Source of the DNA: Mycobacterium sp. 3519A
Lineage (GTDB): Bacteria > Actinomycetota > Actinomycetes > Mycobacteriales > Mycobacteriaceae
Length of the DNA: 64,000 nt
Direction of reading: 5' to 3'
Assembly (NCBI RefSeq): GCF_900240945.1
Contig: NZ_OESG01000013.1
Location: 2,255,622 to 2,319,621, forward strand
In this document: positions 57,902 to 64,000 of the stretch, piece by piece
Position numbering within the stretch: position 1 is the first letter of the stretch
Layout: each line of letters opens with the position of its first letter
Notes under the pieces: model-generated
What the model was told of the DNA's origin: nothing
The model's input: only the letters and a program-made list of their open reading frames with translations
The model's database searches: none
Made by a program: the position numbers and the translations under genes

Positions 57902-59167
57902 TCAGCTCGACAGGCCCGCAGCCCACGGGTACGTCTTGAGGTAAGGGTCCGGCTTGATCGGGCCCGGCGACTGCCAGACCGTGTAGATCAGGCCGTCGGG
58001 GTGGATCTCGCCGATGCGAGCGGTCTTGGTGATGTGGTGGTTTTCGCCGTCGATCGTCACCAGGCCCTCGGGGGCGTCGAACGTGACGCCGCCGCAGGCA
58101 TCTTGAATCGCCTTGACATCGAACGACTTCGCCTTCTCGACGGTGTTCTTCCACAGATAGACCGAGACGTACGCGGCTTCCATCGGGTCCGAGGTGGGCT
58201 TGTCCTGGCCGTACTTGTCCTTGTAGGCCTTGACGAACGCCTTGTTCACCGGATTGTCGACCGTCTGGTAGTAGTTCCACGCGGTCAGCTGGCCTTCGAT
58301 GTTCTTGGCGCCGATGCCGGTCACTTCCTCCTCGGCGATCGACACCGAGACCACCGGCATCTTCTGCGGCGTCAGGCCCGCGTTGGTGTACTCCTTGAAG
58401 AAGGCGACGTTGGAATCGCCGTTGAGAGTGTTGAACACCGCCCCGGCGTTGGATCCGCGGACCTTGTTGACGATCGTCGAGAAGTCTGTTGAGCCAAGCG
58501 GTGTGTAGTCCTCGCCCTTGATCTCGATGCCGTTGGCGGCGGCGTACGCCTTGATGATCCGGTTGGCGGTCTGCGGGAAGACGTAGTCGCTGCCGACCAG
58601 ATACAGCGACTTGATGCCCTTTTCCTTCAGGTAATCGAGGGCGGGCACGATCTGCTGGTTGGTGGTGGCCCCGGTATAGAAGATGTTCTTCGACGACTCG
58701 AGACCCTCGTATTGCACCGGGTAGTACAGCAGCGAGTTGGAGCTTTCGAACACCGGCAACATCGCCTTGCGGCTCGACGACGTCCAGCCGCCGAACACCG
58801 CCGCGACACAGTCGCTGGAGATCAGCTTCTGGGCCTTCTCAGCGAACACGGTCGGCTCCGACGCGCCGTCCTCGCCGACGAGCTGGATCTGCTTGCCCAA
58901 AACGCCGCCCGCGGCGTTGATCTGCTCGACGGCCAGATCGATCGCATGCCGCACGGTGACTTCTGAGATCGCCATGGTGCCCGACAGCGAGTTGAGTGCG
59001 CCGATTTTGATGGTCGGTCCCGAGGTGTCCACACACGACGCGGCGTTTGCCGAGTCCGACTCGGTCGCCTTGCTTCCGCAGCCGGACAGCAACAAGCTCG
59101 TCGCGGCGAGGACGCTTCCCGCAGCTAAAGCCGACCGTCTCAACGAAGTGCGTCGCGGTAGTCGCAT
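57902..59167 (-). CDS. urtA: Urea/short-chain amide ABC transporter substrate-binding lipoprotein UrtA
   Basis: A 421-residue lipoprotein. The signal peptide has two basic pairs (RRTSLRRSALAAGS) and the lipobox LLLSGC with lipidated C30. The mature part is a periplasmic-binding type I fold: IKIGALNSLSGTMAISE, FGGWTSSSRKAMLPVFE, LLYYPVQYEGLESSKNIFYTG and LYLVGSDYVFPQTANRI, all characteristic of urea/amide binders (UrtA/AmiC). It heads urtABCDE, and the 245-base upstream spacer holds a repeated motif that resembles a nitrogen-control site. No urease gene lies in the window. Confidence 0.95.
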   Translation of the reverse strand: MRLPRRTSLRRSALAAGSVLAATSLLLSGCGSKATESDSANAASCVDTSGPTIKIGALNSLSGTMAISEVTVRHAIDLAVEQINAAGGVLGKQIQLVGEDGASEPTVFAEKAQKLISSDCVAAVFGGWTSSSRKAMLPVFESSNSLLYYPVQYEGLESSKNIFYTGATTNQQIVPALDYLKEKGIKSLYLVGSDYVFPQTANRIIKAYAAANGIEIKGEDYTPLGSTDFSTIVNKVRGSNAGAVFNTLNGDSNVAFFKEYTNAGLTPQKMPVVSVSIAEEEVTGIGAKNIEGQLTAWNYYQTVDNPVNKAFVKAYKDKYGQDKPTSDPMEAAYVSVYLWKNTVEKAKSFDVKAIQDACGGVTFDAPEGLVTIDGENHHITKTARIGEIHPDGLIYTVWQSPGPIKPDPYLKTYPWAAGLSS

Positions 59168-59838: not shown

Positions 59839-60753
59839 CTACGGCGCCACCCGGCGGTTGTGCACGTCGACCACCACCATGGCTGCGTCCAACAACGGCG
59901 TGTCGAGGTGATGCGCGCGGGCGACCTCGGCGAGATCCGCGAACACGCCCATCTCTATCGGGCGACCGGCCCGCAGGTCGCGGAACATGGACGGCCCGAA
60001 CTTCGACGACGGGTCCGTGACCACGGCGTCCAGATTGTTGCGGACCTCGTCCGCGAGCGGGTGGCCCTCGGCCGCCGCGATCGAGGACACTTCGGCCAGC
60101 ACCCGACGGGCCAACGCGACGCCGCCGTCGGCGCGGGCGATCGGTCCTATCTCGGCGCCCACGAGGCAGGTGAGCACCGCCGCGGACATGATGAACGCGA
60201 ACTTCTCCCACATGGCACCGCGGATGTCGTCACGGACCGCGACCGCGACGTCGGGAGCCTCCAGTTCGGCCCGGGTGCGTTTCAGCCCGTCCGCGTCGTC
60301 GCCGTCGAGCGCACCGATCTGAATGTCGATACCGGGCACGACCACGTCGATGACGCCGTCCGCGGACAACGATGCGTGCAGTCGGGCCGCCGCGCCGAGC
60401 GCGCGACGGCCGAACGCCGCAGTCAGCAGCGAGAGATGGCCGATGCCGTTGACGATCGGCACGATCCTGGTGTCGGGGCCGACGGCAGGCAGGACGTCGT
60501 CGATCGCCGATGCGACGGCGCTGGCGCGCACCGCGACGACGATGACGTCGTATGTGGTGTTCAGGTCGGCGGCGGTGACGGCGTTGACGTCGACGGTGCG
60601 GACGTCGGTGCCGTGGCGCGACCGTAATCCGCTCTCGCGCAGTCGCGCCAGCGTGTGGGCGTGAACCAGAAAGGTGACGTCGCGGCCCGCGGCGAGCAAC
60701 CGGTCGCCGATGTACCCGCCGCCCGCTCCGGCGCCGACCACCAAGACGGTCAT
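59839..60753 (-). CDS. 2-dehydropantoate 2-reductase-like (PanE/ApbA) dehydrogenase
   Basis: A 304-residue NADPH-dependent ketopantoate reductase fold. The nucleotide motif is [15 protein letters not shown]; the substrate domain has NGIGHLSLL, the catalytic lysine in [10 protein letters not shown], and [23 protein letters not shown] with the conserved Ser, Asp and Glu. Actinobacterial genomes hold several paralogues, so pantothenate synthesis is not certain. ATG 60753 overlaps the stop of the dehalogenase gene (ATGA), so the two are cotranslated. The long upstream reading of the frame is antisense noise. Confidence 0.83.
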
Positions 60754-61634
60754 GCTCTGACCGCCCGCACGAACGAGGCGACCGCAGCGCCGATTTCGTC
60801 GGGGCTGTCCTCTTGCAGGAAGTGGATGCCGGGCACGGACACCTCGGTCTGGTTGGGCCAGGTACGCACGAAGTCCAAAGCGCGGCCGCGGATCAACGCG
60901 CCTGGTTCGCCCTTGACGAACAGTTTGGGAACATCGCACTGCGACAGCCACTGGCCGTAGTCGGTGACAGTGGCGACCACATCGGCGGGCTCGCCCTCGA
61001 TGGGGATGTTGCGCGGCCAGGTCAGTGTCGGTCTGCGGTCCTCGCCCGCGCTGCGGAACGGTTCGCGGTAGTGCGCCTTCTCCTCGTTGGTGAGCTGACG
61101 CTTGATGGACGCTGGCAGCACCGCCTCGACGAACATGTTCTGCTCCAACACCATCGACTCGCCGTCGGGGGAGCGGAAGCCCTGGAACACGCTGCGCATC
61201 GGACCTGGGAAGTCCGACCACTCGATCGGCATCGCGACGGCTTCCATGTAGGCGATGCCCGCCACCCGGTCCCGGTGCCGGTTGGCCCAGTCGAAGCCGA
61301 GCGCCGAACCCCAGTCGTGCAGCACGAGAATCACCTTGTCGCCGAGATCCAGTTCGTCCCACAACGCGAACAGATAGTCGCGCTGTTCGGCGTAGTGGTA
61401 GCGGTCGGGGCCGGAGTCGTCGAGCTTGTCCGAGCCACCCATCCCGATCAGATCGCAGGCGATCAGTCGGCCCAGCCCTTCCACGTGCGGCATCACGTTG
61501 CGCCACAGGTACGACGACGTCGGGTTGCCGTGCTGGAACACGATCGCGTCACCCTGGCCCTCGTCGATGTAGGCCATCCGCTTTCCGTTGATCTGCTTGT
61601 ACCGCAACTGCCCGTACGGTTTCGCTCCCGGCAC
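60750..61634 (-). CDS. dhaA: Haloalkane dehalogenase (DhaA/LinB group)
   Basis: A 294-residue alpha/beta-hydrolase that replaces a halogen by hydroxyl on short haloalkanes. The subfamily II pentad can be read: nucleophile D107 and halide-binding W108 in [10 protein letters not shown]37 in HGNPTSS, acid E131 in AYMEAV, and base H271 in [10 protein letters not shown]. Overall it closely matches mycobacterial DmbA (Rv2579) as I recall it. GAGGAGG lies 6 bases before GTG 61634. The natural substrate is unknown. It sits 46 bases after the HelR-like gene and overlaps the panE-like gene. Confidence 0.94.
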
Positions 61635-61680
61635 TGAAATCCTCCTCGATTCGATTTCCTGTCAACGGTTTTCGCGGCGA

Positions 61681-63846
61681 TCAAGCCACATGCGGTATCC
61701 GCAGGCCGCTCAGAACGTGCGGCAGCGGGCCGCAGTGCAGCACGCCGAGGCGCTGTGTGGCGCGGGTGAGGGCGACGTAGAGGTCGGCCGCCCCGCGCGG
61801 TCCCTCGGCGAGGATGCGCTCAGGCTCGACGACCAGGACCGCGTCGAACTCCAGTCCCTTCGTCTCCGATGCGGGAACTGTGCCGGGCACACCGGGCGGA
61901 CCGATCACGATGCTGGTGCCCGGCATTTCCTTCTCGGCCTGCACGAATTCGTCGATGGCAGAGGACAGTTCACTTTCACCGACATGCTTGGCCCAAGGCT
62001 GGGCGCCGGATGCGCGGACGGACTCCGGCGGTTGCACGCCGGGCGCGAACTCTTCGAGCAGTGCGGCGGCGATCGCCATGATCTCGGCCGGGGTGCGGTA
62101 ATTCACCGACAGCGGCCGGTACAGCCAGCGGCCCGGCACGTACGGTTCGAGCACGCTGTCCCACGACGTCGCGCCTGCCGCCGCCCTGCGTTGGGCAAGG
62201 TCGCCGACGATCGTGAAGGACCGGTTCGGGCACCGCCGCATCAGCACCCGCCACTGCATCTGCGACAGTTCCTGGGCCTCGTCGACCACGATGTGCCGGT
62301 AGGTCCAATCCCGGTCCGCGGCAGCACGTTCGGCGAGTCCCCGGTAGTCGCGTTCGGCGAAGCGGTCGGCCAGATCCTCGGCGTAGAGGAGGTCGGTGGC
62401 CAGCAGTTGGTCCTCGTCGTCCATCAGATCTTCGCGGCCGACCATCAGATCCAGCACGCCCTCGGCGAACGCGGCATCGGCCTTGCGGTCACGTTCGGCT
62501 TCGTCGTCGGGCAGCTTGGCCCGCCCCAAGAGGTCGAACAGCTCGTCGAGCAGGGCGACGTCCGGCACCGTCCACGCGTCGCCCTTGGCGCGGTGCAACG
62601 CCGGATCGGCGCCTGCGGCCTGCAACCGGTCCGGTGATTCGTACAACTCCGCCAGCAGCGACTCAGGCGTCAGCAATGGCCACAGGTCGTCGAGCGCGGC
62701 GATGAACTCCGCGGTGTCGGTGAGTTCGGCGAGCAGATCCGCGCGCATGTTCTCCCACGCCTGGCCGTCCTCTCGAGTGAGCCAGCCGCGGCCGATCAAC
62801 GCGATGGCCCGTTCGGTGAGCACCCACGTCACGATGTCGCTGAACACCGCGCGGGCCTCGTTGTGCGGCAGGCCGCTTGCGCGCGCCTCCTCGATTGCCC
62901 ACTCGGCGATCTCGGCGTCCATGCGCATCGTGACGTCTTTCAGCGGGATCCGGATCGGCTCGTCCGGCAGTCGCTGCCGGTCGGCCACCGCGGCGGCGAG
63001 CACGTCGAGCATCACCGTGGAGCCCTTCACCTGCGCGACGTACGGTTCGTCCTCGGCCGTGACGTGCAGCCCCGGGACCAGGTCGCCGGGCGTCATGAAC
63101 ACGACGTTCGTCTCGCCCAGCGAGGGCAGCACGCGGCCGATGTGGTTGAGGAAGGCCGCGTTCGGGCCGACCACCAGCACCCCGTGCCGCTCCATCTGCT
63201 CACGCTGCGTGTACAGCAGGTAGGCGACGCGGTGCAGCGCCACCACGGTCTTGCCGGTGCCGGGCCCGCCCTCGATCACCAGCACGCCGGGATGGTCGAG
63301 TCGGATGATCTCGTCCTGTTCGGCCTGAATGGTCGCGACGATGTCGCGCATGCCCTCGCCGCGCGGGGCGTTGACCGCCGCCAGCAGCGCTGCGTCGCCG
63401 CGCGCGCCGCGACCGGGCCTGCCGAACACCTCGTCGGTGAAGTCGACCAACCGGCGCCCGAGACTGTGGAATTGCCGGCGCCTGCGCATGTTCTCGGGGT
63501 TGGCGGCGGTGGCAACGTAAAACGCCCGCGCCGCCGGTGCGCGCCAGTCCAACAACAACGGCTGGTAGTCGTCGTCGGCATCGAAAAGGCCGATGCGGCC
63601 GATGTACGACGGGTCGCCGTCAAGGCTGTCCAACCGCCCGAAGCACAGTGCGTGGTCGACGACGTTCAGCCGGTTCATCTCCCGCGCCAGCGCACGGACC
63701 CCGGCGTCGCGCTCCACAAGCGGCAGGCCGTCTTCCCGCAGCGCAGCGCGGTAGGCGTCCTTGACGCGCGTTCGCTCGGCGTCGAGTCGCGCGTAGAGCC
63801 CGTCGAGGTAGCTCTGCTCGGACTGCAGTTCGTCTTCGTAGGACAC
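61681..63846 (-). CDS. helR: HelD/HelR-type RNA polymerase-associated ATPase
   Basis: A 721-residue UvrD/Rep-like ATPase of the HelD family, which binds RNA polymerase and frees it from stalled or drug-bound complexes. An N-terminal coiled-coil (YEDELQSEQSYLDGLYARLD onward, about 1-60) would enter the secondary channel. Walker A is EGGPGTGKTVVALHR (K199), Walker B IVVDEAQELSQMQW, and helicase-like motifs include VNYRTPAEI, ETKGLEFDAVLVVEP and YVALTRATQRLGVL. GTG 63846 is chosen because the upstream part of the frame contains a promoter and a RAE-like element. That element suggests the rifamycin-protective HelR type. Confidence 0.9.
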   Translation of the reverse strand: MSYEDELQSEQSYLDGLYARLDAERTRVKDAYRAALREDGLPLVERDAGVRALAREMNRLNVVDHALCFGRLDSLDGDPSYIGRIGLFDADDDYQPLLLDWRAPAARAFYVATAANPENMRRRRQFHSLGRRLVDFTDEVFGRPGRGARGDAALLAAVNAPRGEGMRDIVATIQAEQDEIIRLDHPGVLVIEGGPGTGKTVVALHRVAYLLYTQREQMERHGVLVVGPNAAFLNHIGRVLPSLGETNVVFMTPGDLVPGLHVTAEDEPYVAQVKGSTVMLDVLAAAVADRQRLPDEPIRIPLKDVTMRMDAEIAEWAIEEARASGLPHNEARAVFSDIVTWVLTERAIALIGRGWLTREDGQAWENMRADLLAELTDTAEFIAALDDLWPLLTPESLLAELYESPDRLQAAGADPALHRAKGDAWTVPDVALLDELFDLLGRAKLPDDEAERDRKADAAFAEGVLDLMVGREDLMDDEDQLLATDLLYAEDLADRFAERDYRGLAERAAADRDWTYRHIVVDEAQELSQMQWRVLMRRCPNRSFTIVGDLAQRRAAAGATSWDSVLEPYVPGRWLYRPLSVNYRTPAEIMAIAAALLEEFAPGVQPPESVRASGAQPWAKHVGESELSSAIDEFVQAEKEMPGTSIVIGPPGVPGTVPASETKGLEFDAVLVVEPERILAEGPRGAADLYVALTRATQRLGVLHCGPLPHVLSGLRIPHVA

Positions 63847-63919
63847 GTGCCTCTTTTCCTGATCTCTGGCCTCCATCCGGCCCATATCGAAGGTAGGGGA
63901 GGATTTTGAGGCATGCCCC

Positions 63920-63938
63920 CGACCTTGCCGCAAGCCCC
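63920..63938 (-). promoter_or_regulatory. Rifamycin-associated element (RAE)-like inverted repeat upstream of helR
   Basis: On the minus strand it reads GGGGCTTGCGGCAAGGTCG, with the inverted repeat CTTGC-G-GCAAG at its core. This matches the 19-base RAE as I remember it from actinobacterial rifamycin-inactivation and helR genes. It lies 73 bases before the GTG and just downstream of a -10 box. Confidence 0.8.
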
Positions 63939-63945
63939 CACCCGC

Positions 63946-63951
63946 GTTATA
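63946..63951 (-). promoter_or_regulatory. -10 box of the helR promoter
   Basis: TATAAC on the minus strand (within CGTATAACGCG), 7 bases upstream of the RAE-like element. It places the transcription start inside or next to that element. No clear -35 box was identified in the remaining 49 bases of the window, which hold no other feature. Confidence 0.55.
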
Positions 63952-64000
63952 CGGTTGAAAGGGCATCAGGCCGACACACTCGAGTAATTACCTTGACATC

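What the first reader, a model, noticed from the sequence alone, without database searches (positions are those of the whole stretch)
63846..63951. RAE-like element and promoter in front of a HelD-family gene: probable inducible rifamycin protection
The sequence shows a 19-base element with the core CTTGCGGCAAG between a TATAAC -10 box and the GTG start of a HelD-type ATPase. From established knowledge, the rifamycin-associated element precedes rifamycin-inactivating enzymes and helR in actinobacteria, and HelR displaces rifamycins from RNA polymerase. The combination predicts that this gene is rifamycin-inducible and gives intrinsic tolerance. The element would be at the very start of the transcript.
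Basis: partly seen in the sequence, partly recalled or inferred. Interest (0 to 1): 0.8.

Follow-up and report, generated by a model that had tools for sequence, protein, structure and literature searches.

The report
Two-way rifamycin switch before helR
The gene looks like a standard bacterial protector against rifamycin antibiotics with its known drug-linked DNA element, but comparison with related bacteria suggests that the element sits between two back-to-back promoters, one pointing away from the gene, which gives a testable lead on how such bacteria sense the drug.

Summary
A HelD/HelR gene (minus strand, 61681-63846) follows a rifamycin-associated element (RAE, core 63924-63934), as reported. 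By sequence it is a HelR of the M. smegmatis type with the acidic loop intact; RAE-helR pairs are published. The promoter reading is partly wrong. The conserved sense promoter has its -10 (CAAAAT, 63903-63908) 19 bp after TTGCGG inside the RAE, matching promoter 2 described for M. smegmatis, so the RAE is at its -35 position, not at the transcript start. The "TATAAC" box is a poor sense -10. What is conserved there is TANNNT on the opposite strand (here TACGGT, 63950-63955), 19 bp from TTGCCG on the other face of the palindrome: 83 of 83 gene-oriented loci (0.11% at control offsets), 49 of 52 helR-anchored loci (0.35%). The RAE thus looks like the centre of a symmetric divergent promoter pair in a block of about 73 bp. 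A pattern of the whole module hit 26 of 296 genomes sampled from the phylum (reversed control 0); the 30 loci fetched of 34 matches all precede relatives of known rifamycin-resistance genes. Caveats: nothing was expressed or measured; the RAE here has T at +7, where 52 of 52 independently chosen sites have C; the primary RAE papers could not be read.

The parts
61681..63846 (-). helR (HelD class II), 721 aa, GTG start; tip of the primary-channel loop REDLMDDED at residues 471-479 (E478/D479 correspond to M. smegmatis E484/D485)
63920..63938 (-). RAE, 19 bp (GGGGCTTGCGGCAAGGTCG), centre at 63929; T at +7 where 52 of 52 helR-anchored sites have C
63928..63933 (-). -35-like TTGCGG of the sense promoter P2, inside the RAE
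   Evidence: overlap of the RAE with the -35 of promoter 2 described for M. smegmatis in PMC10719064
63903..63908 (-). -10 of the sense promoter P2: CAAAAT, 19 bp after TTGCGG; nANNNT here in 83/83 and 52/52 related loci
63925..63930 (+). -35-like TTGCCG of the predicted antisense promoter PA, on the other face of the same palindrome
63950..63955 (+). -10 of the predicted antisense promoter PA: TACGGT (TANNNT), 19 bp after TTGCCG; TANNNT in 83/83 and 49/52 related loci
63962..63963 (+). GG about where the antisense transcript would start (92% and 88% of 77 sites; orientation in that call was partly chosen by module score)
63946..63951 (-).
63853..63860 (-). AGGAAAAG, possible ribosome-binding site before the GTG
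   Evidence: read from the sequence

Best explanation
This is a helR gene under an RAE switch. The RAE palindrome lies at the -35 position of two overlapping, back-to-back promoters: P2, which points to helR, and an antisense promoter PA, which points away. Both have an unusually long 19-bp spacing to their -10. Because they overlap, RNA polymerase should be able to use only one at a time. Without rifamycin PA (better -10, TANNNT) is favoured and P2 (C as first base of its -10) is weak. When rifamycin is present, a factor that binds the palindrome, or the changed state of RNA polymerase itself, shifts initiation to P2. HelR is then made, binds RNA polymerase and drives the drug out with its acidic primary-channel loop. 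Shown here: gene identity, the loop residues, the module with its fixed spacing, its link to rifamycin-resistance gene families. From the literature, seen as passages of reviews: P2, drug induction and loop function in relatives. Inferred: that PA is transcribed, that PA and P2 exclude each other, the direction of the switch, and induction in this strain.
For: Antisense TANNNT at exactly 19 bp in 83/83 gene-oriented loci against 10/9130 at control offsets, and 0/83 sense TANNNT at the same box; 49/52 in loci found only by the HelR protein, against 20/5720 at control offsets (the two sets overlap in species; non-redundant 58 and 31 loci). In the hexamer T1, A2 and T6 are nearly fixed, the third base is free and the fourth and fifth vary (fifth is T in 62%), the signature of a bacterial -10. 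P2 -10 in 83/83 and 52/52. The 28 named helR loci without a proximal RAE show no trace of the module within about 400 bp (best scores -45 to -76; random sequence median -62, maximum -35), so it is present or absent as a block. Seven of these 28 have an RAE core 1.2-1.4 kb upstream, before a glycosyltransferase gene, 6 of the 7 with both -10 elements. PA does not depend on a divergent gene: upstream neighbour co-directional in 34, divergent in 26, unclear in 23 of 83 by a rough codon-composition test. A whole-module pattern hit 26/296 genomes of the phylum, reversed control 0/296; 30 of 30 fetched loci (of 34 matches) precede relatives of HelR, Rox, Rgt, Rph or Arr.
Against: No transcript was measured; PA is a prediction. 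The palindrome is conserved over about 17 bp in helR-anchored loci, more than a -35 element needs, which points to a dedicated binding protein that is not identified. Occlusion alone does not obviously give induction: a polymerase arrested by the drug at PA should also block P2, and in B. subtilis bringing the two promoters too close abolished induction (PMC12802891). Three of 52 helR-anchored sites lack PA at the exact place (L052 shifted by one base, L059 and L067 with off-consensus elements), and so does one of the seven operon-type sites, L039. In L178, the M. smegmatis-like locus, TANNNT can also be read in the sense direction at this place. The window's own RAE is off consensus at +7.
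Confidence: 0.6

Rival explanations
1. The RAE is simply the operator of an unknown rifamycin-responsive DNA-binding dimer acting on P2; the conserved antisense hexamer is a second contact site, or a promoter without regulatory role.
For: In 31 non-redundant helR-anchored sites the bases at -8, -7, -5 to -1, +2, +4, +5 and +7 are the same in 31 of 31 and those at +1, +3 and +8 in 30 of 31. PMC10719064 and PMC12802891 suppose an unknown factor (passages). [quoted passage not shown]
Against: It does not explain why T1, A2 and T6 are kept at one exact distance on the opposite strand in 83/83 loci of six gene families. Among the ORF clusters next to the elements that occur at two or more loci, I saw by eye no regulator family; these clusters were not run against a family library apart from the target genes.
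Confidence: 0.25
2. An RNA-polymerase-only alarm, the divergent counterpart of the B. subtilis convergent-promoter system: no regulator protein, only promoter competition that low drug levels tip towards helR.
For: Two opposed promoters with 19-bp spacing, as in the B. subtilis antisense helD and pps promoters (PMC12802891); same gene family and the same drug.
Against: The geometry differs (back-to-back with a shared -35, not convergent with starts 39 bp apart); the sign of the effect is not obvious; the palindrome is conserved beyond a -35.
Confidence: 0.12
3. One reading: TATAAC is the gene's -10 and the RAE is the first part of the transcript.
For: TATAAC is present at 63946-63951; a sense TANNNT is possible at that place in L178.
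Against: 0 of 83 and 0 of 52 loci have a sense TANNNT there; the sixth base is C in 94% of 77 sites. The upstream M. smegmatis start is reported about 20 bp upstream of the RAE, which fits TACCCT at -41 in L178, not this box.
Confidence: 0.05
4. In this genome the element is decaying and helR is no longer, or only weakly, inducible.
For: T at +7 against C in 52 of 52 helR-anchored sites (and in 83 of 83 sites that had been selected for C there); only 7 of 83 sites score lower on the module profile.
Against: Both -10 elements, the spacing and the core palindrome are intact, and the gene is an open frame of normal length.
Confidence: 0.2

Closest known systems
HelR / class II HelD of actinobacteria (M. 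smegmatis MSMEG_2174, M. abscessus MAB_3189c, S. venezuelae SVEN_6029)
   Same: Same family by curated models; acidic tip of the primary-channel loop identical to M. smegmatis; RAE upstream. PMC8655204 (passages) already groups RAE-linked helD genes and notes that some members of the group lack an RAE, as 28 of 80 named loci do here near the gene.
   Different: RAE with T at +7; the upstream M. smegmatis promoter P1 has no conserved counterpart at a fixed place in the loci compared.
Rifamycin-associated element (RAE; Spanogiannopoulos 2014, known here only through reviews)
   Same: 19-bp palindrome before rifamycin-resistance genes.
   Different: Seen here as the centre of a block of about 73 bp with a conserved antisense -10. 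My paper searches showed no such description; the primary papers were not held.
B. subtilis dual-promoter rifampicin alarm at helD and pps (PMC12802891)
   Same: Sense promoter opposed by an antisense promoter with 19-bp spacing, before helD.
   Different: There the promoters are convergent with starts 39 bp apart, and the paper sets RAE-controlled genes apart; here they diverge and share the RAE as -35.
Two-promoter description of class II helD in the review PMC10719064
   Same: P2 with the RAE at its -35.
   Different: The passages I saw list two sense promoters and no antisense one.

Membership tests
HelR / HelD class II | Curated family models above cut-off | tested here: met
   HelD_MYCSM 1348.7 bits (cut-off 1051), motor_HelR_2 1337.3 bits (cut-off 1100); a second HelR model, motor_HelR, gives 465.8 bits, below its cut-off of 750
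HelR / HelD class II | Acidic tip of the primary-channel loop (M. smegmatis E484/D485) | tested here: met
   REDLMDDED identical; E478/D479 in the window
HelR / HelD class II | Removes rifamycin from RNA polymerase and lowers susceptibility | not testable with these tools
   needs an experiment
RAE | Palindrome CTTGC-S-GCAAG with GG/CC flanks | tested here: met
   exact core; right flank one base off, T at +7
RAE | Upstream of a rifamycin-resistance gene | tested here: met
   core 77 bp before the GTG of helR; a second RAE in the same genome precedes an Rgt-like glycosyltransferase
RAE | Required for induction by rifamycins | not testable with these tools
   reported for relatives in PMC10719064
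B. subtilis dual-promoter alarm | Sense and antisense promoters present | tested here: inconclusive
   both -10 elements conserved; antisense transcription not measured
B. subtilis dual-promoter alarm | Convergent geometry with about 39 bp between starts | tested here: not met
   P2 and PA diverge from a shared -35; in L178 the reported P1 start lies about 20 bp upstream of the RAE, inside PA

The most novel reading that the evidence does not exclude
RAEs in general are two-way promoters: the palindrome is the shared -35 region of a promoter for the resistance gene and of an antisense promoter, and the choice between them, not only a classical regulator, is how actinobacteria register rifamycins. 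The RAE and the B. subtilis convergent-promoter alarm would then be two solutions of one principle, an opposing promoter next to the rifamycin-resistance gene.
Probability: 0.3. Interest if true: 0.85.

Novelty: new variant of a known kind. Interest (0 to 1): 0.62.

Why it matters
A 2026 paper (PMC12802891, passages) says that the regulatory mechanism of the RAE remains to be elucidated. A conserved antisense -10 in the element gives a concrete, testable part of the answer. The module also picks out rifamycin-resistance genes from DNA alone (30 of 30 fetched loci, of 34 matches), which could help to find unannotated ones in environmental actinobacteria. The gene in this window is itself an ordinary member of a known family.

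Tried and rejected
A known RNA family at 61000-64000: none at gathering thresholds. The module on viral contigs: 0 matches. An arr gene in this genome: none at E 0.001. A transcribed hairpin as the working form: the positions at -6/+6 are G/G or G/A, which do not pair, in 68 of 89 entries, and the RAE lies upstream of the expected P2 start. A conserved upstream sense promoter P1: among sense TANNNT starts from -50 to -12 only -27 (13 of 83) and -20 (3 of 83) reach three loci, none in the 52. Orientation by module score was partly circular, so orient by gene. The class-wide 16-base pattern is noisy: 105 of 246 genomes match, and the reversed control matches in 60 of 246 by my reading, so I rest nothing on that count alone. 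First script on the loci printed nothing because of a wrong file pattern; repeated. Dropped rows: L142 and L144 had no assignable gene (85 of 87 loci assigned); L124 and L127 were too short (83 used).

Full report
What is there. The minus strand of 61681-63846 encodes a 721-residue HelD-family protein starting at GTG 63846. It passes the curated cut-offs of HelD_MYCSM and motor_HelR_2, not that of the second model motor_HelR, and its best solved relative is M. smegmatis HelD (6yxu). The tip of the primary-channel loop, REDLMDDED, is identical; E478/D479 correspond to M. smegmatis E484/D485, residues that the review PMC10719064 (passages) reports as needed for rifampicin resistance. A search of 297 genomes of the genus with 306 N-terminal residues of M. 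smegmatis HelD matched 174 at E 0.001, some weakly; this genome has one match.

Surroundings. helR lies next to a haloalkane dehalogenase gene (60750-61634) and, beyond the window, an Rv2578c-family radical SAM gene in divergent orientation, which starts 28 bases after the window end. From memory, not from a call, the two neighbours are adjacent in M. tuberculosis without helR. The same genome has a second RAE before an Rgt-like glycosyltransferase (Rgt model 516.5 bits, below its cut-off of 800) and no arr at E 0.001. The other one-mismatch matches have no better standing than its reversed control (6 against 15 matches in all).

The element. An 11-base core is not rare in 64 kb. The exact 17-base pattern is far above its reversed control in the genus (202 against 17 of 297 genomes, the latter by my reading). 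A shorter 16-base pattern occurs in 105 of 246 genomes of the class, but its reversed control in 60 of 246 (my reading). Of 87 pattern-found loci (one own; 30 of the matches in the genus; 30 of those in the class; 26 from genomes that I picked in two families), 85 have a gene of a recurrent cluster on one side: 35 HelR, 22 Rox-like, 11 glycosyltransferase, 8 Rph, 7 Arr, 2 ABC transporter. Names rest on one example each (Rox-like and Rgt-like below the equivalog cut-offs, Rph a cut-off fragment, Arr above its cut-off, the ABC example above the drrA subfamily cut-off); HelR on loci shared.

The module. With loci oriented by their gene, 83 of the 85 were long enough to compare. On the sense strand nANNNT lies 19 bp after the TTGCSG of the RAE in 83/83 (CANNNT in 78). 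On the antisense strand TANNNT lies 19 bp after TTGCSG of the same palindrome in 83/83, against 10/9130 at control offsets. In a set selected only by the HelR protein (the best 80 of 155 named loci), 52 have a proximal RAE core with at most one mismatch; 49 of these have the antisense -10 (control 20/5720) and 52 the sense one. The sets overlap in species; made non-redundant they hold 58 and 31 loci. Exceptions: L059 and L067 have off-consensus elements, L052 is shifted by one base. The other 28 helR loci show no module near the gene (best scores within the range of random sequence; L095 has only 164 bp upstream). Seven of them have an RAE core before a glycosyltransferase gene 1.2-1.4 kb upstream, 6 of 7 with both -10 elements. 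By a rough codon-composition test the gene upstream of the RAE is co-directional in 34, divergent in 26 and unclear in 23 of 83 loci, and 17, 22 and 11 among the named helR loci (2 too short), so the antisense -10 is not kept merely to serve a divergent gene. In the own genome it could still drive the Rv2578c-like gene.

Reach. A pattern of both -10 elements and the RAE hits 26 of 296 genomes sampled from the phylum, 11 of them outside the class; the reversed pattern hits none. The 30 loci fetched, of 34 matches, all precede relatives of HelR, Rox, Rgt, Rph or Arr by tblastn, for HelR and Rox often at only 34-40% identity; many of the loci inside the class repeat those of the earlier sets. The window's own element is missed by this pattern because of its +7 base.

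Mechanism. The review PMC10719064 (passages) places the RAE over the -35 of the mapped M. smegmatis promoter 2; the module reproduces that. Promoter 1 is reported to start about 20 bp upstream of the RAE, which fits TACCCT at -41 in the M. smegmatis-like locus L178 (97% over 306 residues) but has no fixed counterpart elsewhere. The new point is the antisense -10. Sense and antisense promoters would use the two faces of one palindrome and exclude each other. The palindrome is kept over about 17 bp in helR-anchored loci, so a binding protein is likely. In B. subtilis a sense and an antisense promoter, convergent and with 19-bp spacing in the antisense one, give rifampicin induction of helD, in part also in a purified system (PMC12802891; abstract, passages and sections 37, 45, 48, 49 read). 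That paper says that the mechanism of the RAE remains to be elucidated. I hold a shared-promoter switch as most likely, with the trans-acting part open.

Limits. No expression data. The window's RAE has T at +7 where 52/52 helR-anchored sites have C. The M. smegmatis start-site paper PMC6448022 does not name helD in its main text, and its tables could not be read. The primary RAE and HelR papers were not held, so an earlier description of the antisense promoter cannot be excluded; searches showed none in the open library.

Noticed in passing
   Followed up: partly
L039, L051, L075, L082, L091, L092, L114: helR downstream of an Rgt-like glycosyltransferase, with an RAE core before the glycosyltransferase: apparent rgt-helR operons.
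   Followed up: partly
L220, L228, L229, L230, first about 200 bases after the RAE: Short stretches (28-43 residues) like the start of a different resistance gene than the one that follows; perhaps remnants of exchanged genes behind one RAE.
   Followed up: no
L017, L019, L020: ORFs that look by eye like an MFS transporter, divergent from helR on the other side of the RAE, where the antisense promoter would drive them.
   Followed up: no
window 60750-61634 (-): Haloalkane dehalogenase (PRK03592 model, 435.4 bits against a cut-off of 241) next to helR.
   Followed up: no
window 57902-59167 (-): Urea ABC transporter substrate-binding protein UrtA (585.4 bits against a cut-off of 492.75).
   Followed up: no
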